A stretch of 41,785 nucleotides of DNA from Planctomycetales bacterium (lineage in GTDB: Bacteria > Omnitrophota > Gorgyraeia > Zapsychrales > Zapsychraceae). Of the stretch, positions 56-35,881 are shown one piece after another. Numbering within the stretch: position 1 is the first letter of the stretch; each line of letters opens with the position of its first letter. The stretch covers positions 1 through 41,785 of the forward strand of contig SBBO01000034.1 of NCBI GenBank assembly GCA_005239675.1. The letters run 5' to 3'. Both the position numbers and the translations under genes were made by a program. The notes below the pieces were generated by a model. The model ran no database searches, was not told the origin of the DNA, and worked only from the letters and a program-made list of their open reading frames with translations.

Positions 56-1594
56 TTATATCTTGGTAAATTCCTTTTCGCGTAACTTACGCCTTAAAAT
101 CTTTCCCGAAGGCCCTTGCGGGAGTTCTGCAACAAATTCTATCTCGGAAGGGGTCTTAAAATCTCCCAATAATTTCCGGCAATGCCGTTGCAGCTCTTTG
201 GTATCCAGCGTCTTGGAATCTTTTAAAACGACATAACTCTTAATAACTTCTCCTAGCAACATATCCGGCTTACCTACCGTGGCCGCATCCCGGACAGATT
301 CGTGCAATAGTAAGGCCTCATCGACTTGAGAAGGAACGATGTTAACACCGCCCTTGATGATCAAATCTTTTTTGCGGTCCACGTAATAAAAAATCCCGCC
401 TTCATCCACATACCCGATATCTCCGGTCATAAAATAACCATTCTTTAAGCAGGCCTCATATTCGCTGGTATTTTTATAATAGCCGCGCAATAAGCTGGGC
501 CCCTTGACGGCAAGTTCTCCTGTCTGGCCAGGCTTAACCTCGCGGGCGTCCTCATCGAAGACTTTTACCTCCATGATATCCAACGGCCTCCCAATGGAGC
601 CAGTTTTACGATTGGGCAGAAATGGATTGTCGAAGTGTGTCGCCCCTGTCTCCGAGAGGCCGTACATATTCGCCAGCGGCACATTAAATTTTGTTTCAAA
701 TTTTTCTTGTAAATTTTTGGATAGGTACGCTGAACCGCACCCGATGAATTTCAGGCTGGCGATGGTCTCTCTATTGAAATCCTTATAATCCGTATTTAAT
801 AGCGCAACAACGATGGAGGGAACAATCTCGACAAAGGTGATCTTATATCGTTCAATGATTTTCCAAAAATCCGTCCTCGCCTTCCAAAACGATTCAAACA
901 AAATGACCCGAGAGCCGGTCAAAAGACATGGCCAGATGGAATAGCGAATAGCCGCGGTGTGCCCTAGCGGTAAGACACATAGATGGGAGGAATCTGGCGC
1001 AATAAAGGCACTCCTTAAGAGAGAACCCATAGCCAAGATCTCACTGCGAGTCGAATATTCGATGATCTTGGGCGAGCCAGTCGTGCCCGAAGAGTAGTAC
1101 AAAAAGGCAGTATCATCGGGATTAATAGAAGGATGAGGGTATTCACTGTCCGAGAATTCTTGAAGCTTATTTGCCATCATCGATTCTTTGTCGGACTGGA
1201 CAGTCTTGACGTTGAGGCCTTTGCTAGATATCTTCTCGGCTTGCGCGGCATGTGCGTAAATAACCTTAGGACCGATCCCCACCAGCTTCTCTTTGATCTC
1301 TTCGCCACCTAGATGAAATGGAAAGGGACTGATGACACAACCCATTTTTAGCGTCGCAAAGTAAAGGATCAGGTAGTCGATGGAATTTTTTAAGATAATG
1401 GAGACGATATCTCCTGCCTGTACGCCATCTTTGGCGAGCATGCGGCAACATTGATTAACGAGCCGATTGAAGGCGTGAAATGAATATTCTCTGTTTTGCT
1501 CAACGAGAAAAATCTTTTCAGCGAAGACCTCAGCGGCATCGGCTAAGATTTCAGGAAAACTCTTATGTTCCTCTATCACCTTCATCATCTTCAT
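56..1594 (-). CDS. AMP-dependent acyl-CoA synthetase / acyl-AMP ligase
   Basis: This 512-residue protein is a class I adenylate-forming enzyme that would activate a carboxylic acid as acyl-AMP and pass it to CoA or a carrier. The core motifs are all present: the phosphate loop SSGTTGSPK (about 168-176), YGLSETG (311-317), TGD (390-392), DRKKDLIIKGG (406-416) and the C-terminal catalytic lysine in PSGKILRRK (about K498). Length is normal for the family. The ATG is preceded by GAGG about 8 bases upstream. It is the last gene of the operon in the window, 14 bases after a GNAT gene, so it may supply an unusual acyl group for sugar N-acylation; no acyl carrier protein is seen nearby. The substrate cannot be told from sequence. 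It could also be an unrelated fatty-acid or amino-acid activating enzyme. Confidence 0.9.
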   Translation of the reverse strand: MKMMKVIEEHKSFPEILADAAEVFAEKIFLVEQNREYSFHAFNRLVNQCCRMLAKDGVQAGDIVSIILKNSIDYLILYFATLKMGCVISPFPFHLGGEEIKEKLVGIGPKVIYAHAAQAEKISSKGLNVKTVQSDKESMMANKLQEFSDSEYPHPSINPDDTAFLYYSSGTTGSPKIIEYSTRSEILAMGSLLRSAFIAPDSSHLCVLPLGHTAAIRYSIWPCLLTGSRVILFESFWKARTDFWKIIERYKITFVEIVPSIVVALLNTDYKDFNRETIASLKFIGCGSAYLSKNLQEKFETKFNVPLANMYGLSETGATHFDNPFLPNRKTGSIGRPLDIMEVKVFDEDAREVKPGQTGELAVKGPSLLRGYYKNTSEYEACLKNGYFMTGDIGYVDEGGIFYYVDRKKDLIIKGGVNIVPSQVDEALLLHESVRDAATVGKPDMLLGEVIKSYVVLKDSKTLDTKELQRHCRKLLGDFKTPSEIEFVAELPQGPSGKILRRKLREKEFTKI

Positions 1595-1608
1595 TGCTGC
1601 CTCGTTAA

Positions 1609-2592
1609 TTAGAAAATCTCGGTTGTGTCACCCATGGTAAAATACCAGTCTTCACCGTTAAGCACATCTTGGTATTTTTCCTTATCCAGATTAATCCGGC
1701 ATATAAAAGGCCTGGGCCTAAGAAGGACAAACCCCTTTTGGGACAAAAGATCATGGTATAGCCGTGATCCGACTATCCAAGCACTTTGAATATTGGTTTG
1801 ATGTTCCACAAAGAAGCCCTCACTACCCTCCAATAAGGCCAAGGCGATGTCATCGCGGCCTGGCAAAGACATGATATCGATGATATGCCCTTTCAAGACG
1901 GCAGCATCCTGATATAATTTCAGAATAACATAACCGGTTAACGTATCAGCCTCGTATAAACCAAAGGCATAATATTTCTGATCCGGCCTTTCCAGATATC
2001 GCCAATTTAGATAAGCCGCATCACGGATAACAGCAATCTTATGCTCATCTTTGACCTGGTCCCACAATGCATCCACCGATTTGTCGAACTTTTGTATCGC
2101 AAGAAACTCAAATCTTGAAGTACCTATCTTGCGGATCGGTTGATCATTGGCATTGGTTTGTTTCTCCCAGGTGCTTATGGCCATGACATCGCTATATCCC
2201 ATCAATTTTTTATGCAGATCATGGGCCAATAGATTAGGAAAGCCGTAAGAAAAAATAATATTCCTCTGAGAGACCTCAACGAATAATCGATCAGCAACAA
2301 ATTTGATTAAACCCTTTCCCTGATAGGACGGTAAGACCATGGACCCTATCGAATGAGAGCCTAAGACATCCTCTCCAAAGACCCGCAGTCGATAGGGGAC
2401 GACAGCAAAATGCACGATGATCTTATGCTCGTTTTCCATCACATAAATGATGGCCCTGCCAGCGGGATTATTCCCGGCGTATTTCCAATACCAATTATCC
2501 AGATTTCTTTTATTCCACGGGTCAGGAAACAACAACCAATCCATCTCCAGGATCTGCTGCTCATCTCCAGGGGCATAGGGTCTAATATTCAT
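1609..2592 (-). CDS. GNAT-family N-acyltransferase
   Basis: This 327-residue protein has an N-terminal GNAT fold: residues 1-110 include the motif-A-like stretch VLPSYQGKGL (about 87-96), where the Q-x-x-G-x pattern binds the pyrophosphate of acyl-CoA. The C-terminal half (about 140-327) has no motif I recognise but has the mixed hydrophobic pattern of a second GNAT-like lobe, as in double-GNAT proteins. It overlaps the end of pseG by 11 bases and precedes the acyl-AMP ligase, which suggests transfer of an acyl group to an amino sugar made by the neighbouring pathway. The donor (acetyl-CoA or another acyl-CoA) is unknown. It starts with ATG. Confidence 0.75.
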   Translation of the reverse strand: MNIRPYAPGDEQQILEMDWLLFPDPWNKRNLDNWYWKYAGNNPAGRAIIYVMENEHKIIVHFAVVPYRLRVFGEDVLGSHSIGSMVLPSYQGKGLIKFVADRLFVEVSQRNIIFSYGFPNLLAHDLHKKLMGYSDVMAISTWEKQTNANDQPIRKIGTSRFEFLAIQKFDKSVDALWDQVKDEHKIAVIRDAAYLNWRYLERPDQKYYAFGLYEADTLTGYVILKLYQDAAVLKGHIIDIMSLPGRDDIALALLEGSEGFFVEHQTNIQSAWIVGSRLYHDLLSQKGFVLLRPRPFICRINLDKEKYQDVLNGEDWYFTMGDTTEIF

Positions 2593-3568
2593 AAGTCAGC
2601 AACGCCTCCCTGATCCTCCTTGCCCCTTGTCCATCGACTAGCTTTGTCCCGATCCGGCCTCGCCTGGCCCTCTCTTTTTTTGAAGAGAGCTTATCGAACC
2701 CCTGCGTGATCTTTCGTTCATAGTGATCATAGTTGCCGGCATATTCAATGAAGCCCTCTTTGTCCCAGCCTTCCAGATTGAATTGCTGGTTCGGGGCCTG
2801 GAGAAAGGCTACCGTCGGCACACCCATACGCGCTAGTTCATATAAAGTTTGTCCACCGGCAGAAATCGCGACATCACAGTGCCCCATCACTTCTTTCATC
2901 TTTGTCGCATCTGGAGAATAAACAAAATCTGTATGACGATCGGCCTGTTCCTTAATCTGTCCCTTATTGGCAAACGCGCCACCAATGATGACTATTTTCT
3001 TCAAGGCCGGATAATACGCCTTGAGAAATTTTAGAATCTTAGGCATCATGTTTAAAGGATCTTGGCCACCGGTTGTTACCATCACAACTTTTATCTTCTC
3101 GCTAACTTTAGTCGCCCCTACTTCCCAAAAGGCTTTTCGCAAACAGGCATATTGATTTCCCAGTAAGCATCTAATATCTTTTCTCTTGGGGTAGTTCAAC
3201 GTCCTTGCACAGATACTGCTGTTGAGGATAACGCCTGACGGATAATCCAAACGTTTATGGTCATCTATGTAAACTGGGATCTTGACCAACACAGAGAGTC
3301 TCTTATAAAAATCAACCCCCCCCAAATAAGAATCCATGACAACGATATCGAATTCCTTGGCGAGCGCAAAGAGTTTATTTTTTTCTTTAAGCCAGTTGGC
3401 GATCTGACAATCCTCTCCTTGAATTACTTTCTTAATACTGTCATCACCATTAATGACGAATCGTGGTCTTATTCCCTTCTCTTGAAAAGCCTGGGAAATT
3501 GCCAAACACCTCTGGATATGGCCTAACCCGCCAATCTTGCCACCCTCGGTCACTATAAGAATTCTCAA
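2582..3568 (-). CDS. pseG: PseG-like UDP-diacetamido-trideoxy-sugar hydrolase
   Basis: PseG removes UDP from UDP-2,4-diacetamido-2,4,6-trideoxy-L-altrose, giving the free hexose that is condensed to pseudaminic acid. The 328-residue protein has the family signature G-L-G-H-I-Q-R-C (14-21, with the catalytic-type H17), the GGQDP stretch (about 167-171) and the nucleotide-binding SAGGQTLYE (236-244) of the GT-B-like fold. The start appears to be TTG: an in-frame TTG overlaps the TGA stop of the upstream spsF-like gene (TTGA), with GGAG 5-6 bases before it, and the family N-terminus begins right there. It sits between the CMP-transferase and a GNAT gene, which supports a nonulosonic-acid role. 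The exact sugar stereoisomer is not provable from sequence. Confidence 0.87.
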   Translation of the reverse strand: MRILIVTEGGKIGGLGHIQRCLAISQAFQEKGIRPRFVINGDDSIKKVIQGEDCQIANWLKEKNKLFALAKEFDIVVMDSYLGGVDFYKRLSVLVKIPVYIDDHKRLDYPSGVILNSSICARTLNYPKRKDIRCLLGNQYACLRKAFWEVGATKVSEKIKVVMVTTGGQDPLNMMPKILKFLKAYYPALKKIVIIGGAFANKGQIKEQADRHTDFVYSPDATKMKEVMGHCDVAISAGGQTLYELARMGVPTVAFLQAPNQQFNLEGWDKEGFIEYAGNYDHYERKITQGFDKLSSKKERARRGRIGTKLVDGQGARRIREALLTYEY

Positions 3569-4338
3569 TCTGACTCCACCCTTGAAGAAATCACCCGATC
3601 ATTCTTTAAAGATTTAACGAGGCCTTCATTACGAACAATGTCCGCATTAAGCCGCAAGATATCATCATGGGCATCCAAGAAGGTCTTAATGTCATCTATC
3701 AAGAAGCATTGCCGCTTTTCCCGTTTAAAATGTTCAAAGATCGCCGTAGCTACCAAGAAATCCCGCTCTTCATCAACGGACAACCGATACCGGCTGTCAT
3801 CGGTCTTATTATCTAATATCAATGTTTTAAATAGTTCCGGATGATTATAAAAATAAAGCGTGACGTGTTCCCGTTCTGACTGAAGGCTCGCCTCGTTCCA
3901 GGCCTTGGCCAAGGCCTGGAAGGTACACACCTCGCAGTCTAATCCTTCCGCGAACGTTGGCCCTGTTTTCCCATAATCAAATCTTCCTTTCTGAAAGGTC
4001 GTGATCAGCTCCTCACAGACCTGAGGGTCGATCAAGGGGCAATCGCCGGTTAGTCGTACGATGATTTTGGGATGATCTTGTTTAGCCACCTGATAAAATC
4101 TGTCCAAGACGTCCTCTTCACTGCCTCGATAGACCGCTAGCCCTATATCTCGCGCGTATTGAGCCATTGGATCATTTTCGGGTAGAACCGAGGTGGCCAA
4201 CACCATCTTGTCGATACTTTTTATCCAGGACAATCTTTCTAATAAATGCCCGATCATCGGCTTACCTGCGATCTCTTTCATGACCTTGCCGGGTAAACGG
4301 GTTGACGACATCCTTGCTTGAATAATGGCTAGGATCAT
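3565..4338 (-). CDS. SpsF/PseF-type cytidylyltransferase
   Basis: This 257-residue protein belongs to the SpsF/CMP-nonulosonate cytidylyltransferase family, which activates 9-carbon sugar acids with CTP. The nucleotide-binding signature IIQARMSSTRLPGKV is at 5-19 and the metal-binding LTGDCPLID at 96-104. The order spsF-pseG with a 4-base overlap is typical of pseudaminic or legionaminic acid clusters. The start is an ATG 5 bases after the stop of the class III aminotransferase gene. The gene contains a 26-base perfect palindrome (3896-3921). Some SpsF proteins in such clusters are not proven to be CMP-transferases, so the product is given as a family. Confidence 0.85.
   Translation of the reverse strand: MILAIIQARMSSTRLPGKVMKEIAGKPMIGHLLERLSWIKSIDKMVLATSVLPENDPMAQYARDIGLAVYRGSEEDVLDRFYQVAKQDHPKIIVRLTGDCPLIDPQVCEELITTFQKGRFDYGKTGPTFAEGLDCEVCTFQALAKAWNEASLQSEREHVTLYFYNHPELFKTLILDNKTDDSRYRLSVDEERDFLVATAIFEHFKREKRQCFLIDDIKTFLDAHDDILRLNADIVRNEGLVKSLKNDRVISSRVESD
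3896..3921. repeat. 26-base perfect palindrome inside spsF-like gene
   Basis: The sequence from TTCCAGGCCTTGG to its exact reverse complement CCAAGGCCTGGAA forms two 13-base arms with no spacer. It lies inside the coding frame (it encodes part of FQALAKAW), so it may be coincidental, but a spacer-free palindrome this long is rare by chance. It could extrude as a cruciform, or form a strong hairpin in the polycistronic mRNA. Confidence 0.95.
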
Positions 4339-4343
4339 AAGTT

Positions 4344-5654
4344 TTAGGCCAGCCTCTTGAATCCAGAATGGCAGACCGGCCCCTCCAGCATATCCTCTAA
4401 GGTCCCTGCCTTTAAGGCATCGGCAATCCTTCGCCAGACCTTATTAGCAACAACCAAGTACCGATCGATGATGGCCATGGTGTGAGCGTACGATACATAA
4501 ATAGTGGTCGTGGCTAGAAATCCTTCTTTGAGCATCTCTTGAGTAAAGATCGTCTTTACAACCAACGGTTTCTCTAGCCTAATAACCATCATTGGAACCG
4601 AGACAAGCCCTGCCATATCGATCTTCAAGGAATATTTTTTGAAGATATCAAGAAGCCCTTGGGTAAGATATTCGCCGGTCTCCATGAGTTTCTTGGCGAC
4701 TTGATCGCGCTCGAATATCTTAATGGTTTCCAGCGCCGCTACAAAACCTATCCGCTCCGTCCAGTAAGTACTACTAATAAATGTCCTTTGTGCTGCCTGC
4801 ATGACATCGCGGATACCAATCACAGAGGAGATCGGATACCCGTTGCCCAAGGCCTTACCCAGAACCAAGATATCCGGATTAATCCCATAGACCATGTGCA
4901 TTCCCCCCGTTGTTACCCGAAATCCAGAGGAGACCTCATCAAAGATAAGAACCGCACCGATGGCCTTGGTGATCTCTTTTACTTTCTTTAGAAATTCCAC
5001 AGCAACTTTTTGATGACGGCCAACCTCCATAATGACGACACCGATTTCATTTTTATTCTCCTCAATTAACCGCTGAAATCCTTCAGTGTCGCCATAGACG
5101 AAAGGGACTGCTGAATGGGCGAGTCCCGCGGGGACACCACAGGGCTCCAGGCCTGGTAATAGCTGGCCGTCCAAATTCTTGTCATCGGCCAGATTAGAGG
5201 CAAGATACCAATCCCCCCAGCCATGGTAACCGCAGAAAGCGACCTTATCTTTTTTAGAAAAAGCCCGCGCAATGCGTACCGCGATCATACACGCCTCACC
5301 TCCGCTTTTGGCATATCTAACCATCTGGGCCCAGGGGTGGAGCGTAATCAGTTTCTGGGCCAACTGGATTTCTTCATAACAATTCAAGGTCGACATGTTC
5401 CCCTCAGCAATGGCTGCCATGACCGCTTGGTTGACTTCATCATTGGCATAACCCAAGACACAGGTGCCCACCCCCATAATGCTCATGTCATCATAATGCC
5501 TATCATCCAGGTCCCAGACCTCGACTCCTTTAGCTTTTTTATAATAAGATGGCCATTGATCTGGTAAAAACATCTCAGAACGTTTTGACAAAAGCTGGGT
5601 TCCCCCAGGAATAAGTTGTTTGGCCTGTTGGTATAATTCTTGAGATTTTCCCAT
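4344..5654 (-). CDS. Class III PLP aminotransferase (GSA-aminomutase-like)
   Basis: This is a fold-type I class III aminotransferase resembling glutamate-1-semialdehyde aminomutase (HemL). It has YHGWGDW (about 143-149), the PLP-binding DEVSSGFR (239-246) and the PLP lysine in LGKALGNG (about K267). HemL-like copies in SpsF/PseG clusters are widespread and are thought to aminate a sugar or a side-chain precursor rather than make haem. The ORF track starts at a TTG at 5678; I prefer the ATG at 5654, which has AAGG about 9 bases upstream and leaves an 11-base gap rather than a 13-base overlap with the upstream gene. That gives 436 residues, a normal length. The substrate is unknown. Confidence 0.85.
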   Translation of the reverse strand: MGKSQELYQQAKQLIPGGTQLLSKRSEMFLPDQWPSYYKKAKGVEVWDLDDRHYDDMSIMGVGTCVLGYANDEVNQAVMAAIAEGNMSTLNCYEEIQLAQKLITLHPWAQMVRYAKSGGEACMIAVRIARAFSKKDKVAFCGYHGWGDWYLASNLADDKNLDGQLLPGLEPCGVPAGLAHSAVPFVYGDTEGFQRLIEENKNEIGVVIMEVGRHQKVAVEFLKKVKEITKAIGAVLIFDEVSSGFRVTTGGMHMVYGINPDILVLGKALGNGYPISSVIGIRDVMQAAQRTFISSTYWTERIGFVAALETIKIFERDQVAKKLMETGEYLTQGLLDIFKKYSLKIDMAGLVSVPMMVIRLEKPLVVKTIFTQEMLKEGFLATTTIYVSYAHTMAIIDRYLVVANKVWRRIADALKAGTLEDMLEGPVCHSGFKRLA

Positions 5655-5665
5655 AGTATCAAACC

Positions 5666-7789
5666 TTAATTTACGCAAGCATATTGTTTCAAATTACTAT
5701 TAATCGAAAAAACCTTGTCTTTACCCCACAGGGCACTGTAACGCTCGGCCGCATCGGACAAAATTGTCTCCCGAGGCAGTTTGGCCTTGAACCCTTCCAT
5801 GATCCATTGTAAATATGCGCCCATCCTCTGGGCGGCACGACCATCACGGAAAGGGTCCAGTTCATCAATCATCGATGACCAGTCACCAAATCGAGGCACC
5901 CCGCTTGGATAGGCCCAATGGTCCTCACAGGCCCTCCAAAGTTCACCCCAATTTTTAAAGATGACTCGCCCTACACCCAATGCATATAACGGACTTCTCG
6001 AATAGCCCTCCCGATCAAGCATAAGCGTTGGTGTCCCTGTTAGCGCGGATTCAAGGCCAGCGGTGGCAGCAAAAAAATGACCGTGGATAGCCAGATCCGC
6101 TGCTAAGGCCGCGGCCGCAGGTGGATAGGACCCAAACACATTATTTTTGTCAAAGACAAAACACCGTCCGGTCTTTAGGGCGCAGTCAAGAAGCCCAGCC
6201 ACATTCCCCAATCTCTTCCTTAGGCTGGAAACGACTTTGGGTTTCAAGATGAGTCCTAACCACGGTTTTTCCAAAACCTTATTCAATAAATAGGTATAAT
6301 TCTCCTGGGTTACCTGATGGCCAATATTCCACCGATCATCATCAACAGAACTCTCATCAAAGTAGGCTATAATCTTTTGGGCTCCAGCAGCGCGCAGGCG
6401 GGTCTTAAAATTTTCCGCTTCTTTGCGGATCCCGGCAAAACGGTACTCCCCCCAATATCCGGTGACAACATAATAAGGAATTAAGGAATCGACATCGTGT
6501 CCTAAATGAGCCCCTAGCTTGGAAAATCCAAAGACCACATCCGCTGCGGTCACCGTCCATGGATTCGAGGCCATTTCAAAGGAGCGCTGATAGATAACCC
6601 CCACACCACCGCCCTGACGCAAGGCATCTGCCAATGGCAAATAGCCCGATTCATATTTATACCAGGACACATGCATTTTAATATTGTACCGAGCAAAAAA
6701 GTGTGCCCAATAACGACGCTGTTGATCATAATCTCCCAACTGTTTGCACAGATCTTCTTGGATAGCAGCCTCATCTTGATTCATGGTGCTGCTGGGATGA
6801 GAGTCAACCTTGACTTTCGGGCTATGGTAGTTGAAAATTGGTGCGCGAGGGGTGCGCGCGGCCCTGGTATTGAGAACAACCGCGGACATCCCGCAGCTTA
6901 AGATTTCCTCCAACTCTTTATCCGAGACCGGGAAACGGGTATGCTGAAAATAAATAAGGATGTCCTTACTGGCAATTGTTGAATTTTGGTAAAAGAATAG
7001 GTCGGAATTCAGATAAGGAGAAGACAAATTAAGGTGTCCGTAAAATTCAACCGCTATTTTAGGAGACGAATCCTTCGAAGGGTTATTGATGGCAATATCC
7101 ATCAGCGATTTTTGAAAGATTGTACACATCCTATATTTTATCTTCATTCCATGATACATCATTTTCTTAATGAAAGACTTTACAGGACCGGATTGTGCCA
7201 CAATCCTTGCAATATTACAATCAAACCCGATACCGCGCATGGGAATAATAGCAACATCCTGCTTTTGGATCGCCCATTTCCCAACTTGCGCCAACCATGG
7301 TCTCTGTCCAGAGGAAAGGAACATAGTGACAGGGCCTTGACTGTTCAATCGACAAGAGGCCAACCGAATAAGCAGAAGAATCCTGGTCAGTCCAAATGGA
7401 CTTAAATCAAAATATAAAATACGCCGCATCAAAAATAGCAACAGATGCTTTTGGGTCCGGTACTTCTTCAGGAGGTCCTGGAATGCCAGGTGCGTCATCA
7501 TGTATTTCTGGATTTCAACTAGGTCTTCGAAGGCGACTTTCCACCACAAGAGATCCCCCTGGCTATCTTTGGAATCAAATAAAGTAAAATCCAGCCGCCT
7601 AACCTCGGCCCTTATGGTCGGGGACATCCCCTGAGCCAACTTTAACCCCAGCCAGGAGGCATCAATATAATATAAAGACAAAGATACCTTGAGTGATTGT
7701 TTTAAAAAGTAGGGAAAGATGAAAAACAACCACGAACAAATGGTCAATTTTTCAATATAAAAAACTTTTCTATCATTCATATCATTCAT
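5666..7789 (-). CDS. Large GT-B-like protein, putative glycosyltransferase
   Basis: I do not recognise a named family for the whole 707-residue protein. The C-terminal 400 residues look like a GT-B fold. They include a Rossmann-like segment with HGHFFAATAGLESALTGTP near 580-600, resembling the donor-binding stretch where a conserved Glu follows a Gly/Ala-rich loop, and an RDGRAAQRMG stretch near the end. The N-terminal 300 residues have hydrophobic strands but no clear signal peptide. It overlaps the upstream GNAT gene by 4 bases (ATGA) and sits with pseG and spsF-like genes. A plausible but unproven role is transfer of a nonulosonic acid to protein or glycan. Confidence 0.5.
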   Translation of the reverse strand: MNDMNDRKVFYIEKLTICSWLFFIFPYFLKQSLKVSLSLYYIDASWLGLKLAQGMSPTIRAEVRRLDFTLFDSKDSQGDLLWWKVAFEDLVEIQKYMMTHLAFQDLLKKYRTQKHLLLFLMRRILYFDLSPFGLTRILLLIRLASCRLNSQGPVTMFLSSGQRPWLAQVGKWAIQKQDVAIIPMRGIGFDCNIARIVAQSGPVKSFIKKMMYHGMKIKYRMCTIFQKSLMDIAINNPSKDSSPKIAVEFYGHLNLSSPYLNSDLFFYQNSTIASKDILIYFQHTRFPVSDKELEEILSCGMSAVVLNTRAARTPRAPIFNYHSPKVKVDSHPSSTMNQDEAAIQEDLCKQLGDYDQQRRYWAHFFARYNIKMHVSWYKYESGYLPLADALRQGGGVGVIYQRSFEMASNPWTVTAADVVFGFSKLGAHLGHDVDSLIPYYVVTGYWGEYRFAGIRKEAENFKTRLRAAGAQKIIAYFDESSVDDDRWNIGHQVTQENYTYLLNKVLEKPWLGLILKPKVVSSLRKRLGNVAGLLDCALKTGRCFVFDKNNVFGSYPPAAAALAADLAIHGHFFAATAGLESALTGTPTLMLDREGYSRSPLYALGVGRVIFKNWGELWRACEDHWAYPSGVPRFGDWSSMIDELDPFRDGRAAQRMGAYLQWIMEGFKAKLPRETILSDAAERYSALWGKDKVFSINSNLKQYACVN

Positions 7790-8346
7790 ACGCTCTTTTT
7801 AAACTTTAGCGGGCCATTGGCACACTTTTCAACTAATACTGTATCCACGTATCTTCCTTTGAATAATACATGCCTGGTTAAGTGTCCTACTTTCCGATAG
7901 CCAGCCTTTATAAAGGCCTGGTATGAGCCTACATTGTCAACAATCATTCCGGCCGTCAGCTTATTCAAACGAAGAGCCTGAAACGCATATTGCGTCGCCA
8001 GGGCAATGGCCTCTGTTGCATAGCCTTTTCCCCATTCCTCCTTGCAACCGATGATTAACCCCAGATCGGCAAACTTATGCAACGCATTTACGTTTCCAAT
8101 CTTTATGTTACCAATATGCTGATATTTTTTCTTAAGAAAAATCCCAAACAAATAATCATTGGGGCTCTTACGCATCCGCGCAACATATCTTTTAAGTTCT
8201 GCTCGGCTATACCCCTTGTCCCGACCTGTTAAATAGCGAAGCACTTGGGGATCCTGCATCCAACGAATATAGTCTGATGAAACTTGTTCCTCGTTCAACG
8301 GATTTAAGAAAATTCTTTTGCCGGTAATTTTAACCAAATTTTTCAT
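7786..8346 (-). CDS. RimJ/RimL-type GNAT, PseH-like acetyltransferase
   Basis: This 186-residue GNAT protein has the RimJ/RimL layout: FLNPLNEEQ near 13-21, I-G-N-I-K near 78, and the acetyl-CoA loop EEWGKGYATEA at 103-113, followed by N-x-G-S-Y-Q-A-F-I-K-A-G-Y near 137-150. PseH of the pseudaminic pathway, which acetylates the 4-amino group made by PseC, is this type and size. Overlap with the next gene (ATGA) and the PseC-fusion gene two genes upstream support this role. RimJ/RimL-like proteins are numerous, so an acetyltransferase for another amino sugar in this operon is also possible. Confidence 0.75.
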   Translation of the reverse strand: MKNLVKITGKRIFLNPLNEEQVSSDYIRWMQDPQVLRYLTGRDKGYSRAELKRYVARMRKSPNDYLFGIFLKKKYQHIGNIKIGNVNALHKFADLGLIIGCKEEWGKGYATEAIALATQYAFQALRLNKLTAGMIVDNVGSYQAFIKAGYRKVGHLTRHVLFKGRYVDTVLVEKCANGPLKFKKSV

Positions 8347-8352
8347 TCTAAT

Positions 8353-9255
8353 CTACACCTTAAGGGCCCACTGGTAAGGCAAAAGGATCTCTTCTCGCTC
8401 AATTTCTATAGAGTTTAACTGAGAATAAATTTGCCTAACCTTATTTAAGAGATTCATTGCGGCCACATTATTTTTTAAATGAGCCAGGCTATCCACACCG
8501 ATTACCACCTTATCAATGGCCGGATTGGATAACACAAAATTTAAACAAAGCGCCTCAGCTGGGATTTTCTCTCCATGGGCAATCCGCTGTAAATTGGCCA
8601 ACGCTGGTCTGGCCTCTTGCAAGAATACCGGAAGACTATCCAAATTTAAGAAGGCCACTCCCTGTAAGAAGACCGACCGGGCATGGACTGCTATGCCTTT
8701 TTTAGCCAATGGCTCAAAATATTTCTCAAACCGACGATCAAAGATGCTGTACGGAATCTGGACCATGTCCAATTTTATTTCTTTATCCAATAAAAAGACC
8801 AATTCATCAGGAGAATACAAAGAGACGCCTACCTTCTCTATCTTGCCTTCTTCCTTAAGCATGGCGAGATCTTTCCATATATCCTCATTAGCTACGATAT
8901 CCTTAAACCGATGCACCAAGTATCCATAAAGTCTATGGACTCCCAAGCGTTGTAGGCTCTGCTGAAAAAATTCAGCAATTTTTCCCGGGACATATTGACC
9001 GAGCGATGGCAATTTGGAGACAATTTTAAAAATGCCCGGTTTATCCCGAAGACATTCTCCAATCACTGACTCACTGTCGCCATAGGCCCAAGCCGTATCC
9101 AAACAAAAAATGCCAACCGACTGCGCGTAATTGAGGATGTCGGCCACCTGAGGCTTGGTTGCCTTACCTAAGCTGTTGGCAATGCCATAATCCTGCCCGA
9201 ATTGGGCGGTCCCCAAACAAATCTTTCCTGTCGTGTTATCTACTTTTGTAGACAT
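8353..9255 (-). CDS. Aldo/keto reductase
   Basis: This is an NAD(P)H-dependent aldo/keto reductase with a TIM-barrel fold. With the start used here it has 300 residues and the classic catalytic tetrad: D53 and Y58 in LDTAWAYGDSE, K81 in IVSKLP and H115 in YLVHRF. GTAQFGQDYGIAN at 15-27 is typical of the subfamily found in nonulosonic-acid and polysaccharide clusters. The track start at 9351 would add 32 residues overlapping the upstream coding region by 112 bases; the ATG at 9255 begins at the family N-terminus and overlaps by only 16 bases. It probably reduces a keto-sugar intermediate; the substrate is unknown. Confidence 0.86.
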   Translation of the reverse strand: MSTKVDNTTGKICLGTAQFGQDYGIANSLGKATKPQVADILNYAQSVGIFCLDTAWAYGDSESVIGECLRDKPGIFKIVSKLPSLGQYVPGKIAEFFQQSLQRLGVHRLYGYLVHRFKDIVANEDIWKDLAMLKEEGKIEKVGVSLYSPDELVFLLDKEIKLDMVQIPYSIFDRRFEKYFEPLAKKGIAVHARSVFLQGVAFLNLDSLPVFLQEARPALANLQRIAHGEKIPAEALCLNFVLSNPAIDKVVIGVDSLAHLKNNVAAMNLLNKVRQIYSQLNSIEIEREEILLPYQWALKV

Positions 9256-11420
9256 AAATTTTGCGATCCCGCGATTAATTGCCTTATCGTTGAAATGACT
9301 TTTTCCGTATCGCCTGGCGTTAACTGAGGATGAAGCGGGATAGAGAGGCACCGCTTATAATAATGTTCCGCCACAGGATAATCCCCCCATTTCGTTGCAA
9401 AATTCTTTTGATAAAAGGGTTGCGTGTGGATCGGGATATAATGAACTTGGGTCTGGATTCCTTTTTTCTTCAACTCGGTCATCAGCCAGGCCCTGGTTAT
9501 TCCAATCCCTTGAAAATCAAAACAAAGGACATAGAGGTGGAAATTGCTCTCGCCAAAGTCTGCCTCATAAGGAACGATAACCCCCGGGGTGTCCCGAAAG
9601 GCACTATTGTATTGACGAACAATTGCTTTCCTTCTATCGACAAATTTAGGCAATTTTTTTAACTGAGAAATTCCTAAGGCACACTGGATGTCGGTGATTC
9701 TATAGTTATACCCCAAACAATGCTGCTCATAATACCAAGGCTTCCTGATGACGTTGTCCTGGGGCCCGGGAGAGATTTCAAAGGCCTCTTGCCGATAGAT
9801 AAATTCTTCTGGGGAACTCGTAATCCCGTGCGAACGAAAATAACTTAATTGTCGGTGTAATTCTCGATCATTGGTCAAGACGGCCCCGCCTTCGCCGGTG
9901 GTGATATGCTTGACTGGATGAAAGCTCAAGACCGCCATATCCGAAAAGGCGCAGGAACCAACTTGCGTCTTTTGATAGCGAGAACCCAAGGCATGGGAGG
10001 CATCTTCAATAATATAAATTTTATGCCCGTATTTTTTCTCCGCTGCTCTAACAAGACCCTGGATTTGCTCCATGGCACAACTCTGTCCAGCAAAGTGCAC
10101 GGGGATGATCGCCTTGGTCCTCTCATTAATTCTTTTGGCGATCTCCTGGGGCGCGATGTTGTAGGTCTGCGGGTCAATATCCGCAAACACAGGCCTTCCC
10201 CCGCAATAGACAACGCAATTGGCTGAGGCCACAAATGTACTGGGCGATGTAATCACCTCATCGCCAGGACCAATCCCTGCCGCAAGACAGGCAATATGCA
10301 AAGCCGAGGTCCCAGAATTTACCGCGACCGCAAAGGCTGCCTCTGTTTTTTGGCAAAGGGCTGATTCAAATTCTTCAATCTTAGGCCCTTGCGTAATAGA
10401 TCTTGATTTTAAGACTTCCACAACCGCAGCGAGATCGTCACTTTCAATGCATTGATGCCCATATAAAATTATATCTGAGGAAGGCAGTGTATTGTTTAAA
10501 ACAATATTAGATTTGATCACCCGAGGAATTCCTTCCCGGAAATCTTCTACAAAACGTTTCATGGAATGATCCATAGAGGGGATATCAACCGAGAGGGCCT
10601 TGGCTAGTTTAGCTGTGTTAAGATTTAATCTCTTGCTACGTCTCGCTTTAAACCCGAAATCATCCACTGAAATCGGTTTGATTAAATTCGTATTAAGATT
10701 GAGTCTGGTGGCAATCTCCTTTAAAAAGGTATATTTAGACATCGATGTTGCACTGGCACAATTATAGATTCCCGCAAGATGTTTATGAATCGCTAGATCC
10801 AAAATCCTTGCCAACTCAAAGGTATAGATGGAGGAAAAAATACAGTCCGTAAATCCTTGGATCTCTCTTTGTCGGGTTAATTCATGAATCACCCACTCCC
10901 CGATACTGTATTTATCCTGGATATTCCAACCAAAGAAATTGGTCCTTAAGACCAAGGAACCCTCGCGACGCAAGACCTCGGCCTCGGCCTTGCATTTGGT
11001 TATTCCATAGCAATTGAGAGGATTAGGCCGGTCCTCCTCGCAAAAGTCTCCCCTAAGGCCATCATAAACCAAGTCGGTTGAGATATAAATCAATTTGGTT
11101 TGTGGGTAATTATTCAAACTCTCCACTAAATTCCTCGTCCCGAACACATTAATACGTTCAGCTTCTTGGGCGCGTTCTTCGCATATATCCACATCTGCCT
11201 GAGCTGCGCCGTGAACAACAATATCAGGGCTAAATCGTTTGATCAGGGCGCCAATGCCATCACCGACCGTTAGGTCTACCGCCTGCGTTGATATCCCATC
11301 TATCTCAACCCTGCAGGAATGGTAGAGCCCTAAGATTTCATAAGAGTCTCTTAGCGAAAAGGCTAAATTATTGCCCAAGAGACCACTGACACCAGTAATA
11401 AGCATTTTTTGTTTTTGCAT
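9240..11420 (-). CDS. Fusion: RmlD-like SDR + PseC-like aminotransferase
   Basis: This 726-residue protein joins two enzymes. Residues 1-300 are an extended SDR of the dTDP-4-dehydrorhamnose reductase (RmlD) type: TGVSGLLGNN at 9-18, STD at 114-116 and the catalytic YGITK (Y138, K142). Residues from about 317 to the end are a DegT/PseC aminotransferase: YGHQCIESDDL...ITQGP matches the PseC N-terminal signature, NSGTSALH is at 368-375, and the PLP lysine is K504 in HPVKHITTGEGG. PseC makes UDP-4-amino-4,6-dideoxy-L-AltNAc from the PseB product. No stop codon or frameshift separates the two halves. The linker is about 290-316. Fusion suggests channelling of a keto intermediate between reductase and aminotransferase, or two enzymes of one modification branch. 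The start is ATG with a weak upstream GAG. Confidence 0.9.
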   Translation of the reverse strand: MQKQKMLITGVSGLLGNNLAFSLRDSYEILGLYHSCRVEIDGISTQAVDLTVGDGIGALIKRFSPDIVVHGAAQADVDICEERAQEAERINVFGTRNLVESLNNYPQTKLIYISTDLVYDGLRGDFCEEDRPNPLNCYGITKCKAEAEVLRREGSLVLRTNFFGWNIQDKYSIGEWVIHELTRQREIQGFTDCIFSSIYTFELARILDLAIHKHLAGIYNCASATSMSKYTFLKEIATRLNLNTNLIKPISVDDFGFKARRSKRLNLNTAKLAKALSVDIPSMDHSMKRFVEDFREGIPRVIKSNIVLNNTLPSSDIILYGHQCIESDDLAAVVEVLKSRSITQGPKIEEFESALCQKTEAAFAVAVNSGTSALHIACLAAGIGPGDEVITSPSTFVASANCVVYCGGRPVFADIDPQTYNIAPQEIAKRINERTKAIIPVHFAGQSCAMEQIQGLVRAAEKKYGHKIYIIEDASHALGSRYQKTQVGSCAFSDMAVLSFHPVKHITTGEGGAVLTNDRELHRQLSYFRSHGITSSPEEFIYRQEAFEISPGPQDNVIRKPWYYEQHCLGYNYRITDIQCALGISQLKKLPKFVDRRKAIVRQYNSAFRDTPGVIVPYEADFGESNFHLYVLCFDFQGIGITRAWLMTELKKKGIQTQVHYIPIHTQPFYQKNFATKWGDYPVAEHYYKRCLSIPLHPQLTPGDTEKVISTIRQLIAGSQNLCLQK

Positions 11421-25519: not shown

Positions 25520-26494
25520 CTAAATCTCCTTTACCAGTTCTGGTTCAATTAATTTCTCTGATGAATCTTGGAATCTGAGTAGATTCTTTATAGTGGCAAT
25601 GATATTCTCTGTGGTGATGCCAAAATCCCGCATAAGGCTGGCTTGAGAACCATATTTATCCGCAAAGATATCAGGGATACCGATGCGTTTAAATCGTTTA
25701 ACCGTTGGTAAGTTCGCCTCACTTACAATCTCAGCAACCGCACCTCCCAGGCCCCCTAAGATGTTGTGTTCTTCAACGGTAACAATGACGGAAACCTCAG
25801 CCGCACAGCCCACGATAGTTCGATAGTCCAAAGGCTTGATTGTTGGAACATGCAGGACACCCGTATTTATTCCTTCTGATCTTAGCCGGGTGGCTGCCTC
25901 TAAACCGATCTTTAAGGTAATGCCTGTTGTAACAATCAAGGCATCTCGCCCCGGACGTATTTCAAAGGCCTTGCCGATTTCAAAAGGGATTCTATCGTTG
26001 GTCACTATAGGGTCGCCGCCCTTAGCCACGCGGACATAGATGGGCCCCTTATGGTCAAGCGATTGCAGCATGACCCGACGCATTTCATCGGCATCCGCAG
26101 GCGCGATCACCGTCATATGGGGAATCGTACGCATAATCGCGATATCATCAATTGCTTCGTGAGTGGGCCCCAGCGGCGCATACACTAAACCTCCGCCGTT
26201 TCCCAGGAGTCGGACATTAAGATTGTGAAGCCCCAAATCGATGACCACCTGCTCAAAACAGCGTCGGGTCAAGAATGTTGCGATGGTGTTAACGTAAGGA
26301 ATCTTTCCTTCCATCGCGAGACCCGCGGCCATGCCAACCATATTGGCTTCGCTGATGCCTTCCATAAAAAAACGTTCGGGCATTTCATCTTTAAATTTCT
26401 GCAGCGTGCCGATCCCCAAATCCGATCCAATGAAAAAAACACGCTTATCCTTGCGCGCGAGCTCATAGACCATATCCAAACAGGCCTTACGCAT
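25520..26494 (-). CDS. Transketolase C-terminal subunit (Pyr and C domains)
   Basis: This 324-residue protein has the pyrimidine-binding and C-terminal domains of transketolase. GISEANMVGMAAGLA holds the glutamate that activates thiamine diphosphate, and PLGPTHEAIDDIAIMRTIP is the typical Pyr-domain stretch; VTVEEHNILGGLGGAV marks the C domain. The start ATG at 26494 shares its first base with the TGA stop of the N-terminal subunit gene (TGATG). Together with that gene it forms a two-subunit transketolase, as known for several catabolic and sugar-modification systems. The likely job is to move a two-carbon unit for a heptulose or branched sugar; this is inference. Confidence 0.88.
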   Translation of the reverse strand: MRKACLDMVYELARKDKRVFFIGSDLGIGTLQKFKDEMPERFFMEGISEANMVGMAAGLAMEGKIPYVNTIATFLTRRCFEQVVIDLGLHNLNVRLLGNGGGLVYAPLGPTHEAIDDIAIMRTIPHMTVIAPADADEMRRVMLQSLDHKGPIYVRVAKGGDPIVTNDRIPFEIGKAFEIRPGRDALIVTTGITLKIGLEAATRLRSEGINTGVLHVPTIKPLDYRTIVGCAAEVSVIVTVEEHNILGGLGGAVAEIVSEANLPTVKRFKRIGIPDIFADKYGSQASLMRDFGITTENIIATIKNLLRFQDSSEKLIEPELVKEI

Positions 26495-27339
26495 CAATAA
26501 ACCTCCAGGGCTTCCTGAAGTTGTTGAATTTCTTCATCGCTAATTCCGCTTTTGTGATGCCATTTCATATTGCCTTCAGTGCAGCTCATCCCCTTGCCTT
26601 TAAGTGTATGACAGATGATGGCCGTCGGTTTATTTACCTCCAATGGAACCGCTGAGAATGCGGCCTGCAACGCCTTTACGTCATGACCGTCTATCTCTCT
26701 GACGACAAAACCAAAGGCCTCCCATTTCCTGGCGAATGGTTCCAGATTTTGAACATCACGCGTCGGGCCATAAGACTGATATTGATTATAATCAATAAGG
26801 ACAGTTAAATTGCTCAGGCGGTGTTTAGCTGCACATAATGCCGCCTCCCAAACCGACCCTTCATTGCATTCACCATCACCCACAATCACAAAGACACGAT
26901 GGTTGGCCTGCTCATGCCTGGCATGGAGGGCCAAACCAATACCAATGGGCAATCCATGTCCCAGACTTCCCGTGGAGGCCTCAACCCCGGGGACCTTGAC
27001 CTCCGGATGTCCTCCTAGCAGCCCATCCTCCTCGCAAAACCGCCATAACTCTTGCTCAGGGAAAAAACCCTTATCCTGTAAGACAACATAAAGGGCCAGG
27101 CATCCATGGCCCTTGCTTAAAATGCAGCGGTCACGGTCAGGCCATTGGGGATTTGTAGGATCGTAACGCAAAATCTCATCATACAAAACGCGCAGGATCT
27201 CAACCAAAGACAACGCCGCTCCCACATGCCCGCGGCGGGTGGCCTGCAGGGTGGCGATAATACGATGGCGCAAATATTTGGATCGCTCATCGAGCTTGAT
27301 TGTCTTTGTCTTATCCACGGGCGTAGGGAAATTCCTCAT
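26494..27339 (-). CDS. Transketolase N-terminal subunit (TPP-binding)
   Basis: This 281-residue protein is the thiamine-diphosphate-binding half of a split transketolase. It has SKGHGCLALY (75-84), GSLGHGLPIG (124-133) and the GDG-x-N cofactor motif, GDGECNEG (154-161) with N185. The start ATG at 27339 overlaps the upstream phosphotransferase gene by 29 bases; a GTG at 27318 is an alternative but lies 13 bases from GAGGAA. It is next to the C-terminal subunit with a 1-base overlap. Transketolases are usually single chains of about 660 residues; this pair sums to about 605. Confidence 0.88.
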   Translation of the reverse strand: MRNFPTPVDKTKTIKLDERSKYLRHRIIATLQATRRGHVGAALSLVEILRVLYDEILRYDPTNPQWPDRDRCILSKGHGCLALYVVLQDKGFFPEQELWRFCEEDGLLGGHPEVKVPGVEASTGSLGHGLPIGIGLALHARHEQANHRVFVIVGDGECNEGSVWEAALCAAKHRLSNLTVLIDYNQYQSYGPTRDVQNLEPFARKWEAFGFVVREIDGHDVKALQAAFSAVPLEVNKPTAIICHTLKGKGMSCTEGNMKWHHKSGISDEEIQQLQEALEVY

Positions 27340-32295: not shown

Positions 32296-33828
32296 TTACT
32301 TTAATAACCTCGTGATGAATTTAATGAGATCCACCATCTTCACCGGCTCCCGGTTGCAAACGATTTGTACTGCTAGCGACCCGACGACATTACCAATGAA
32401 TGATACCACCTCCTGTGGCATCTTAGCGGCAAAGCATGGGGCGATGAAGGCGAAAAAGGCGTCCCCTGCGCCAATGGCATCGATGACCTGGCTGGCAAAA
32501 GCCGGCGTTTCATGAAAACCACTTTTAGCGGAATAACATAAGGAGCCAGAGGACCCACGGGTTGCGATGATATGTTCACAAGACATCTCTTGGTATATCT
32601 TCTTGGCGTGGGAACGCAAATCACTGAAGCGATCGTGCGTTGCATAACGTAATTCCAATTCATCAACACAGACACAATTGGCTCGTCGATATTTGGTCAC
32701 CAGGTTAAAACCGATATTGGCACTATTGGTCTGAACATTCAAGGCGAGATATCTAGCCCTCGCGCAGATCAAATCCCGAACACGTTTGGTTAAGAGTCCA
32801 TGCCCATAATCAGAGACAACAACTAAGTCGTAATCTTTGATCACTTGTTTAAGATGTTCTATAATCTTTTCTTCTTCGCGTTTGGCGATATCCGTATCCT
32901 CAATGAAACATATCTCAAAAAGTTTTCTGTTTTGGGGCTTACTGACATACCTTCTTTTGATAATGGTGCCGGTATCGGGGCGAAAGAAAAACTTGGCTTG
33001 AACATTTGGACTTAAATGGGCTTCAATAAAATCTTGGCAGGATTTCTTCGCCCCCAGGATAGTCACCAGATCCACCTGGCCACAAACGCTCGCCGTATTA
33101 TTCGCCGTGGCCAAACTCCCCCCAGTAAACATTTCCTTAGATTCATAACGATTGGCGACCAGATGCTCTTTGGAGGATTTACCCATCGGCGTGCAATAAT
33201 AATACTCATCAATAATCGTATCCCCAACAATCAAGACCTTTAAATTCTTTAAGGCTTCAAGGAATGCAATGATATCATCAATAGAATAACGTTTGCCCAG
33301 CGCCTTTAAATACTTAACCGTGCGCGGTGGATAGCTATCAAGATAGTCATTGATGAGCTTGGAAGAACTAAAGGTGATATCATCCGTGAAGAAAATACGG
33401 CCCCCCACTGCCCTGATCGCTTCTTCTTCATCGAAGATCTTTTTCGTGACGTCTTTATCCTTGACCTTGTAATCAGGACCCTTGGCATAGATATCAGGCC
33501 TGATTTTACGGATAAATTCCGTTGCCGTAGGGGCGTCCACAATCGACACAAAATCTGTTACAGCCAGCGATGCCAATGTCTCGGCACGCAGACGATCGCT
33601 AAAATAAGGACGGCCGGGTCCGCGCTTGACGTATTGATCTTGGGTGACCGAGGCGATCAAGACATCACCTTCCTTTTTGGCCTGATTAAAGTGGCGAATA
33701 TGCCCCAGATGCACGATATCAAAGACACCATGACACAAGACGACCTTTTTCCCTTTTTTCTTGAGACCAGCAACAATAGCCGCCAGTCTCTCTTGTGTTT
33801 GTATCTTTTTTAAGATCCCGTTATTCAT
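32296..33828 (-). CDS. Nucleotidyltransferase-PfkB kinase fusion, HldE-like with inverted domains
   Basis: This 510-residue protein joins two domains in the opposite order to E. coli HldE. Residues 1-165 form a cytidylyltransferase-type domain with GVFDIVHLGHIRHF (34-47; HxGH at 40-43) and the closing FSSSKLIND. Residues from about 195 form a PfkB/ribokinase kinase with VGDTIIDEYYY (about 202) and the catalytic GAGD (453-456). In HldE the kinase phosphorylates heptose-7-phosphate at C1 and the transferase adds the nucleotide. A GmhA-like isomerase gene lies two kilobases upstream, which supports a heptose or similar sugar. Its TAA is 16 bases before the next SDR gene and its ATG directly follows the upstream stop (TAAATG). 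Confidence 0.87.
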   Translation of the reverse strand: MNNGILKKIQTQERLAAIVAGLKKKGKKVVLCHGVFDIVHLGHIRHFNQAKKEGDVLIASVTQDQYVKRGPGRPYFSDRLRAETLASLAVTDFVSIVDAPTATEFIRKIRPDIYAKGPDYKVKDKDVTKKIFDEEEAIRAVGGRIFFTDDITFSSSKLINDYLDSYPPRTVKYLKALGKRYSIDDIIAFLEALKNLKVLIVGDTIIDEYYYCTPMGKSSKEHLVANRYESKEMFTGGSLATANNTASVCGQVDLVTILGAKKSCQDFIEAHLSPNVQAKFFFRPDTGTIIKRRYVSKPQNRKLFEICFIEDTDIAKREEEKIIEHLKQVIKDYDLVVVSDYGHGLLTKRVRDLICARARYLALNVQTNSANIGFNLVTKYRRANCVCVDELELRYATHDRFSDLRSHAKKIYQEMSCEHIIATRGSSGSLCYSAKSGFHETPAFASQVIDAIGAGDAFFAFIAPCFAAKMPQEVVSFIGNVVGSLAVQIVCNREPVKMVDLIKFITRLLK

Positions 33829-34828: not shown

Positions 34829-35881
34829 CTATTCCGGGACATCGTCCATGGACCAGCGCGACCGCTCTATGGAATAATCGTCGGCTATTTTACTGACCAA
34901 AGACCGCAAGTCTTCAACCTTCATCCAATCGGTATTGTTATCGGAAGAATATCCAAAGCCATCAGGGCATGGCTGTCCCTTAAGATAACCTGAACCAATA
35001 TGTTCGAATAAATTCTTACGCAAATGGTGATTGTGCTGCACGATAAAACATTCTTTAAATTGCACTGCATTTCTCGCCTCATCTTCACTCAAAAGCGTCT
35101 CATGAACTTTTTCTCCAGGACGGATACCGATGATCTCATGCCGACAATCTGGATCAACAGCCTTGGCTAAATCGGTGATCTTCATCGAAGGGATACGCGG
35201 GACAAAGATCTCGCCACCCTTGGCCCTGACCAGCGACATGATGACAAAATGAACCGCCTGGTCCAGCGTGATCCAGAATCGCGTCATATTAAAATCCGTG
35301 ATCGGCAATACCCCGGTCTTTGCTCTTTCCTGAAAAAATGGAATAACCGAGCCGCGGCTTCCCAAGACATTACCGTAGCGTACCACTAGAAAACGGGTAT
35401 TGTGCCTTGCCGCCTCAGAGTCATTGGCAGCCACAAACAATTTATCAGAACATAATTTTGTTGCCCCATATAAATTCACTGGATTACAGGCCTTATCCGT
35501 TGACAAAGCGACCACTCTGCCCACTTTATTAGTGATCGCGGCGTCAATGATATTCATCGCACCAATAACGTTCGTTTTGATATATTCTTCAGGATTTCTT
35601 TCAGCAGCGGGAACTTGTTTTAAGGCAGCGGCATGAACCACATAATCAATACCTTCGAAGACACGCATCAGTCTGTCTTTATCCCGGATATCGCCTAAAA
35701 CATATTCTAGGCAGGGATACTTGGCGAGACTCCACTTCTGCGCCATTTCAAATTGTTTTAACTCATCACGGCTAAAGACAACGAGGCGCTTAGGTTTAAA
35801 TTCTGCCAAGACGATCTGGACCATCTTCTTGCCAAAAGAACCCGTACCGCCTGTTATTAATATGTTTTTATTGTTTAACAT
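34829..35881 (-). CDS. pseB: PseB-like UDP-GlcNAc 4,6-dehydratase
   Basis: This 350-residue SDR is of the inverting UDP-GlcNAc 4,6-dehydratase (PseB/FlaA1) type. It has ITGGTGSFGKKM (9-20), AALKQVPAAE (85-94), the catalytic STDKA (127-131) and NLYGATK (Y138, K142). PseB opens pseudaminic acid synthesis, and the matching PseC is fused to another SDR at 9.2-11.4 kb, with PseG and a SpsF-type protein near the 3' end. A Rossmann GxGSFG start and length match the soluble subfamily, not the large membrane PglF type. The start is ATG with GGGG nearby. Confidence 0.87.
   Translation of the reverse strand: MLNNKNILITGGTGSFGKKMVQIVLAEFKPKRLVVFSRDELKQFEMAQKWSLAKYPCLEYVLGDIRDKDRLMRVFEGIDYVVHAAALKQVPAAERNPEEYIKTNVIGAMNIIDAAITNKVGRVVALSTDKACNPVNLYGATKLCSDKLFVAANDSEAARHNTRFLVVRYGNVLGSRGSVIPFFQERAKTGVLPITDFNMTRFWITLDQAVHFVIMSLVRAKGGEIFVPRIPSMKITDLAKAVDPDCRHEIIGIRPGEKVHETLLSEDEARNAVQFKECFIVQHNHHLRKNLFEHIGSGYLKGQPCPDGFGYSSDNNTDWMKVEDLRSLVSKIADDYSIERSRWSMDDVPE

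What the first reader, a model, noticed from the sequence alone, without database searches (positions are those of the whole stretch)
9240..11420. SDR reductase fused to a PseC-type aminotransferase
A RmlD-like reductase and a PseC-like aminotransferase are one 726-residue chain with intact catalytic residues in both halves. PseC normally stands alone. Fusion could channel an unstable keto-sugar or tie two branches together.
Basis: seen in the sequence. Interest (0 to 1): 0.65.

Follow-up and report, generated by a model that had tools for sequence, protein, structure and literature searches.

The report
Reductase–PseC fusion at a sugar branch point
One bacterial protein joins two enzymes that probably compete for the same short-lived sugar, one adding an amino group and the other a hydroxyl group, so a single chain could feed two kinds of surface sugar; the fusion is real and conserved, but its chemistry is untested.

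Summary
ORF 9240-11420 (-) is one 726-aa chain: an RmlD-like SDR (residues 5-294), a short flexible linker, and a full PseC (318-715, above the curated PseC cut-off). It is not a sequencing artefact: the same fusion was found at 16 loci in 15 genomes, across several classes of one phylum and in a Desulfobacteraceae MAG, 51-64% identical to the window's, with catalytic residues of both halves kept in all. The PseC halves form one clade (100/99), so one fusion event is likely. The fusion takes the slot that plain PseC holds in otherwise similar nonulosonic-acid operons. The SDR half is probably not rhamnose RmlD (below that cut-off; RmlC undetected in 12 of 15 fusion genomes). Stand-alone relatives often follow PseB and sit with NeuB in clusters without PseC, as if reduction replaces transamination. 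Best reading: a branch-point enzyme. [quoted passage not shown] PseC aminates it, the SDR reduces it to UDP-6-deoxy-L-AltNAc (or its C4 epimer). 6-deoxy-L-AltNAc and a 3,5,9-trideoxy nonulosonate are known natural sugars; I found no enzyme reported for the reduction. The PseC half is near certain; the SDR substrate is inferred from gene context.

The parts
9240..11420 (-). SDR::PseC fusion gene, 726 aa
   Evidence: single open frame; same architecture at 15 further loci
10539..11408 (-). RmlD-like SDR half, residues 5-294; GxxGxxG, S114-T115-D116, Y138xxxK142
   Evidence: Pfam RmlD_sub_bind 138 bits; below the rmlD equivalog cut-off; motifs conserved in 32 sequences
10470..10538 (-). linker, residues 295-317, variable in sequence
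   Evidence: alignment of 16 fusions; low model confidence at 308-311
9276..10469 (-). PseC half, residues 318-715; PLP lysine K504, D473
   Evidence: NCBIfam PseC 494.9 bits, cut-off 423.5; alignment to 2fn6; fold match
34829..35881 (-). PseB, UDP-GlcNAc 4,6-dehydratase (inverting), the presumed source of the shared 4-keto substrate
   Evidence: 473.8 bits, cut-off 407.75
8353..9351 (-). aldo/keto reductase (listed GTG start overlaps the fusion gene; true start probably further in)
   Evidence: Pfam Aldo_ket_red; recurrent neighbour
7786..8346 (-). PseH-like GNAT acetyltransferase
   Evidence: PseH 40 bits, below cut-off 93.1; recurrent neighbour
4344..5678 (-). class III aminotransferase, GSAM-like
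   Evidence: Pfam Aminotran_3; recurrent neighbour
3565..4338 (-). cytidylyltransferase (CTP_transf_3), presumed CMP-nonulosonate synthetase
2582..3568 (-). PseG-like UDP-sugar hydrolase
   Evidence: PseG 153.6 bits, cut-off 153.55
56..2592 (-). GNAT (1609-2592) and acyl-CoA ligase (56-1594), possible N-acyl tailoring; conserved beside the fusion in L028

Best explanation
The gene encodes a bifunctional branch-point enzyme of nonulosonic-acid / 6-deoxy-HexNAc biosynthesis. PseB (34829-35881) makes UDP-2-acetamido-2,6-dideoxy-beta-L-arabino-hexos-4-ulose. The C-terminal PseC half transaminates C4 to UDP-4-amino-4,6-dideoxy-L-AltNAc, which the PseH-, PseG-, NeuB- and CMP-synthetase-type enzymes turn into a Pse-type sugar. 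The N-terminal SDR half reduces the same C4 ketone with NAD(P)H to UDP-6-deoxy-L-AltNAc (or its C4 epimer), used directly as a glycan residue or carried through the same enzymes to a 7-hydroxy (3,5,9-trideoxy) nonulosonate. Joining the two consumers would capture the ketone before PseB re-epimerises it and would fix the ratio of the two products. Shown here: architecture, conservation, one clade of PseC halves, operon context, and stand-alone SDRs in PseB/NeuB clusters that lack PseC. Inferred: SDR substrate and product, and the benefit of fusion.
For: Conserved fusion with intact catalytic residues in both halves. One clade of fused PseC halves, 100/99. The fusion holds the slot of plain PseC in otherwise similar PseB-PseC-GSAM/AKR-cytidylyltransferase-NeuB operons. 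Stand-alone SDR relatives follow PseB (L040, L041, L081, L083, L085, L043, L088, L091, L112, L113). In L081, L088, L091, L112 and L113 a NeuB-family synthase is present and no PseC above cut-off exists in the whole genome; L113 is reduced to PseB, PseF, SDR and NeuB beside a flagellin gene. RmlC undetected in the window's genome and in 12 of 15 fusion genomes. The expected products, 6-deoxy-L-AltNAc and a 3,5,9-trideoxy nonulosonate, occur together in the F. nucleatum ATCC 25586 O-chain (PMC13014188; PMC5595891). PseB re-epimerises its own product (PMC13317340).
Against: No activity measured. Most fusion loci show one set of downstream genes, which would have to serve two sugars. Some SDR relatives have no PseB beside them (L086, L089, L090, L092, L111). 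Several genomes that lack PseC above cut-off hold other DegT aminotransferases below it, which could aminate the ketone. In the window PseB lies 23 kb from the fusion gene, though on the same strand. NeuB was not found in the window, and only a weak hit exists in its incomplete genome.
Confidence: 0.5

Rival explanations
1. Same pathway, different step: the SDR half acts on another keto intermediate of the single nonulosonate made by the cluster (perhaps one involving the aldo/keto reductase and GSAM-like aminotransferase), and the fusion coordinates successive steps of one pathway.
For: One set of downstream genes per fusion locus; SDR, AKR and GSAM occur together also without PseC (L083, L112).
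Against: The same GSAM/AKR operons run with plain PseC and no SDR relative beside it (L099, L101, L104, L106); SDR occurs without GSAM or AKR (L081, L088, L091, L113).
Confidence: 0.22
2. The SDR half is a structural or regulatory module without turnover of its own, as the RmlD homologue MAT2B is for methionine adenosyltransferase (MAT2B role from general knowledge), stabilising or tuning PseC.
For: MAT2B is among the nearest solved relatives.
Against: GxxGxxG and YxxxK are kept in all 16 fusions and 16 stand-alone relatives; stand-alone copies occur where PseC is absent.
Confidence: 0.1
3. The SDR half is dTDP-4-dehydrorhamnose reductase (RmlD) of rhamnose synthesis, fused by chance of operon neighbourhood.
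For: RmlD is its best family match.
Against: Score below the curated cut-off (147.9 against 224.05); RmlC absent from 12 of 15 fusion genomes including the window's; in G393 an RmlD-like gene beside RmlC is a different gene; stand-alone relatives associate with PseB.
Confidence: 0.04
4. The fusion is an assembly or sequencing artefact.
For: None found.
Against: Full-length homologues in 14 other genomes.
Confidence: 0.01

Closest known systems
PseC (TIGR03588; H. pylori PseC 2fn6/2fnu)
   Same: C-terminal half passes the family cut-off, keeps PLP lysine and Asp, and matches the fold
   Different: carries an N-terminal SDR domain; stand-alone PseC is the form in the other loci examined
RmlD (dTDP-4-dehydrorhamnose reductase)
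   Same: same SDR subfamily fold and NAD(P)H / YxxxK motifs; 4-ketoreductase chemistry on a nucleotide 6-deoxy-sugar
   Different: below the RmlD cut-off; no RmlC in most fusion genomes; associated with PseB
Pdeg/Preq pair of Bacillus cereus (UDP-QuiNAc; PMC4514872)
   Same: a UDP-GlcNAc 4,6-dehydratase followed by an NADPH-dependent 4-reductase
   Different: Pdeg keeps the D configuration; here the dehydratase is the C5-inverting PseB, and the reductase is fused to an aminotransferase
UDP-rhamnose synthase and other fused nucleotide-sugar enzymes (PMC8987622)
   Same: two nucleotide-sugar activities in one chain
   Different: those join successive steps; here both halves are proposed to use the same substrate
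FnlA/FnlB-type route to L-HexNAc sugars (from general knowledge)
   Same: PseB-like dehydratase followed by an RmlD-like 4-reductase
   Different: the PseB here is far below the FnlA cut-off (228 against 730 bits), and no C2 epimerase was seen beside it

Membership tests
PseC | curated PseC profile above cut-off | tested here: met
   494.9 bits against 423.5
PseC | PLP-binding lysine and aspartate | tested here: met
   K504 and D473, conserved in all 16 fusions
PseC | works on the PseB product; PseB in the same genome or cluster | tested here: met
   PseB at 34829-35881 above cut-off; the activity itself is untested
RmlD (rhamnose) | curated rmlD profile above cut-off | tested here: not met
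   147.9 bits against 224.05
RmlD (rhamnose) | RmlC partner in the genome | tested here: not met
   no RmlC in G000 (87% complete) nor in 11 other fusion genomes
RmlD-type SDR superfamily (4-ketoreductase) | GxxGxxG and YxxxK | tested here: met
   all 16 fusions and 16 stand-alone relatives
UDP-6-deoxy-L-AltNAc synthase (proposed) | association with PseB independent of PseC | tested here: met
   L041, L081, L085, L088, L091, L112, L113; not universal among relatives
UDP-6-deoxy-L-AltNAc synthase (proposed) | reduces the PseB product with NAD(P)H | not testable with these tools
   needs an enzyme assay

The most novel reading that the evidence does not exclude
The SDR family is the unassigned reductase that turns the PseB product into UDP-6-deoxy-L-AltNAc, defining a reductive, PseC-free route to 7-hydroxy (3,5,9-trideoxy) nonulosonic acids; the fusion lets one protein supply both the 7-amino and the 7-hydroxy type from a single labile ketone.
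Probability: 0.35. Interest if true: 0.65.

Novelty: new variant of a known kind. Interest (0 to 1): 0.5.

Why it matters
The PseB ketone is known as the entry to pseudaminic acid. If this SDR reduces it, bacteria have a second, overlooked exit to 6-deoxy-L-AltNAc and to trideoxy nonulosonates such as fusaminic acid, for which I found no reported reductase in the literature searched. It would also be a gene fusion that joins competing and not successive enzymes, and it would warn that predicting 'pseudaminic acid' from PseB and NeuB alone can name the wrong sugar.

Tried and rejected
Artefact: rejected by 15 further fusion loci in 14 other genomes and a second copy class. Rhamnose RmlD: below cut-off, RmlC mostly absent. 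Plasmid collection: no record covers 80% of the fusion, and the SDR half hits only one distant rfbD. NeuB in the window's own genome: only a weak 37.9-bit hit on another contig; the contig ends just beyond the acyl-CoA ligase gene, so NeuB may be missing from the assembly. L010 and L011 first looked like fusion hits but are separate PseB and PseC genes. The fold search with the full-length model listed only the aminotransferase half among its best 50. No Fusobacterium genome could be reached to test for the SDR there. The roles of GSAM and AKR in these operons stayed unresolved.

Full report
OBSERVATION. The window holds one uninterrupted ORF at 9240-11420 on the minus strand, 726 aa. Residues 5-294 match RmlD_sub_bind and 324-713 match DegT_DnrJ_EryC1. 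The C-terminal half passes the curated PseC cut-off (494.9 against 423.5 bits), while the N-terminal half does not pass that of RmlD (147.9 against 224.05). The nearest solved relatives are RmlD-type reductases and MAT2B for the first half and ArnB and H. pylori PseC for the second.

NOT AN ARTEFACT. The same architecture was found in a Desulfobacteraceae MAG (L009, 57%), in the window's own family and order and in other classes of its phylum: 16 loci in 15 genomes, counting the window and two copies in G027. In an even sample of 384 genomes of the phylum, 13 carry it. Identity to the window protein is 51-64%. GxxGxxG, the Ser/Thr and YxxxK are kept in all 16 fusions and in 16 stand-alone SDR relatives; the PLP lysine (K504) and Asp (D473) are kept in all fusions. 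An AlphaFold2 model has mean pLDDT 93.5, with low confidence only at the linker (308-311) and around the PLP lysine (504-508); pTM 0.65 leaves the relative placement of the halves open. The aminotransferase half matches ArnB and PseC by fold.

ORIGIN. In maximum-likelihood trees the PseC halves of all fusions form one clade with 100/99 support, apart from 18 stand-alone PseC or PseC-like proteins. The SDR halves and the seven nearest stand-alone SDRs form one clade (98/95), inside which fused and stand-alone rows are not cleanly separated. One fusion event, possibly with some later splits, is the simplest reading; the SDR tree alone does not prove it. Presence in Desulfobacteraceae suggests transfer between phyla (inference).

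CONTEXT. The window has PseB above cut-off at 34829-35881, a PseG just at its cut-off, a PseH-like GNAT below cut-off, a cytidylyltransferase, an aldo/keto reductase and a GSAM-like class III aminotransferase. Related fusion loci typically read PseB - SDR::PseC - GSAM and AKR - cytidylyltransferase - PseH - NeuB, with contig ends cutting some short. Plain PseC holds the same slot in L099, L101, L104 and L106, with the same GSAM and AKR genes and no SDR relative beside it. So the SDR is an addition at the PseC step and not a fixed part of the GSAM/AKR set.

WHAT THE SDR DOES ALONE. Stand-alone relatives follow PseB directly or within a few genes in L040, L041, L081, L083, L085 and, more distantly, L043, L088, L091, L112 and L113. 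In L081, L088, L091, L112 and L113 the cluster also has a NeuB-family synthase, and no PseC above cut-off exists anywhere in those genomes. L113 is the barest: PseB (513.8 bits), PseF (329.8, above cut-off), the SDR and NeuB, beside a flagellin gene. L041 and L085 have PseB-SDR with no NeuB seen nearby. Not every relative has PseB beside it (L086, L089, L090, L092, L111), and these genomes contain other DegT aminotransferases below the PseC cut-off, so the pattern is strong but not universal. RmlC is absent from the window's genome and from 11 other fusion genomes of 15, and where G393 has RmlC its RmlD-like neighbour is a different gene.

MECHANISM. The best-supported reading is that the SDR reduces the C4 ketone that PseC aminates. 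Reduction from the face used by PseC would give UDP-6-deoxy-L-AltNAc; from the other face, the L-talo epimer (inference). 6-deoxy-L-AltNAc and a 5-N-substituted 3,5,9-trideoxy nonulosonate occur together in the F. nucleatum ATCC 25586 O-chain (PMC13014188; reference 13 of PMC5595891). In the tentatively assigned L-glycero-L-gluco form, C5-C8 of that nonulosonate correspond to 6-deoxy-L-altrose (my inference from the configurational prefixes). PseB is reported to re-epimerise its product at C5 (PMC13317340), which gives a reason to capture the ketone quickly. A dehydratase plus NADPH 4-reductase pair is known for UDP-QuiNAc (PMC4514872). Fusing two consumers of one substrate would set their ratio; this is not shown.

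LIMITS. No activity was measured. Most fusion loci show a single downstream gene set, which would have to serve both sugars or leave the reduced sugar to be used directly. Searches of the open literature found no description of this fusion or of a UDP-6-deoxy-L-AltNAc synthase, but most subscription papers are not in that library and protein domain databases could not be queried.

VERDICT. A real, conserved, probably single-origin SDR::PseC fusion, best explained as a branch-point enzyme at the PseB ketone. My estimates: PseC half about 0.9; SDR half as 4-reductase of the PseB product about 0.6; the joint branch-point model 0.5.

Noticed in passing
32296-33828 (-): HldE-like protein with the domains in reverse order: nucleotidyltransferase part first (18-159), kinase part second (191-490), unlike HldE; full-length relatives of 65% in L041 and L042.
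   Followed up: partly
5666-7789 (-): 707-aa protein with no Pfam or NCBIfam match, yet conserved in sugar clusters: 57% in L031, 39% in L092, 30% in L090.
   Followed up: no
L010 7998-10031 (+): Another fusion in a nonulosonate cluster: cytidylyltransferase (CTP_transf_3) joined to the GSAM-like class III aminotransferase in one 677-aa chain.
   Followed up: no
L113 7097-13697: Apparent minimal cluster PseB - PseF - SDR - NeuB beside a flagellin gene, with no PseC above cut-off in the genome; the NeuB is below both the PseI and the NeuB cut-offs.
   Followed up: partly
window 4344-5678 and 8353-9351, with L099, L101, L104, L106: A GSAM-like class III aminotransferase and an aldo/keto reductase recur with PseC in many nonulosonate operons; their role is unexplained.
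   Followed up: no
25520-27339 (-): Transketolase-like enzyme split in two adjacent genes inside the polysaccharide cluster, with similar pairs in L028 and L041.
   Followed up: no
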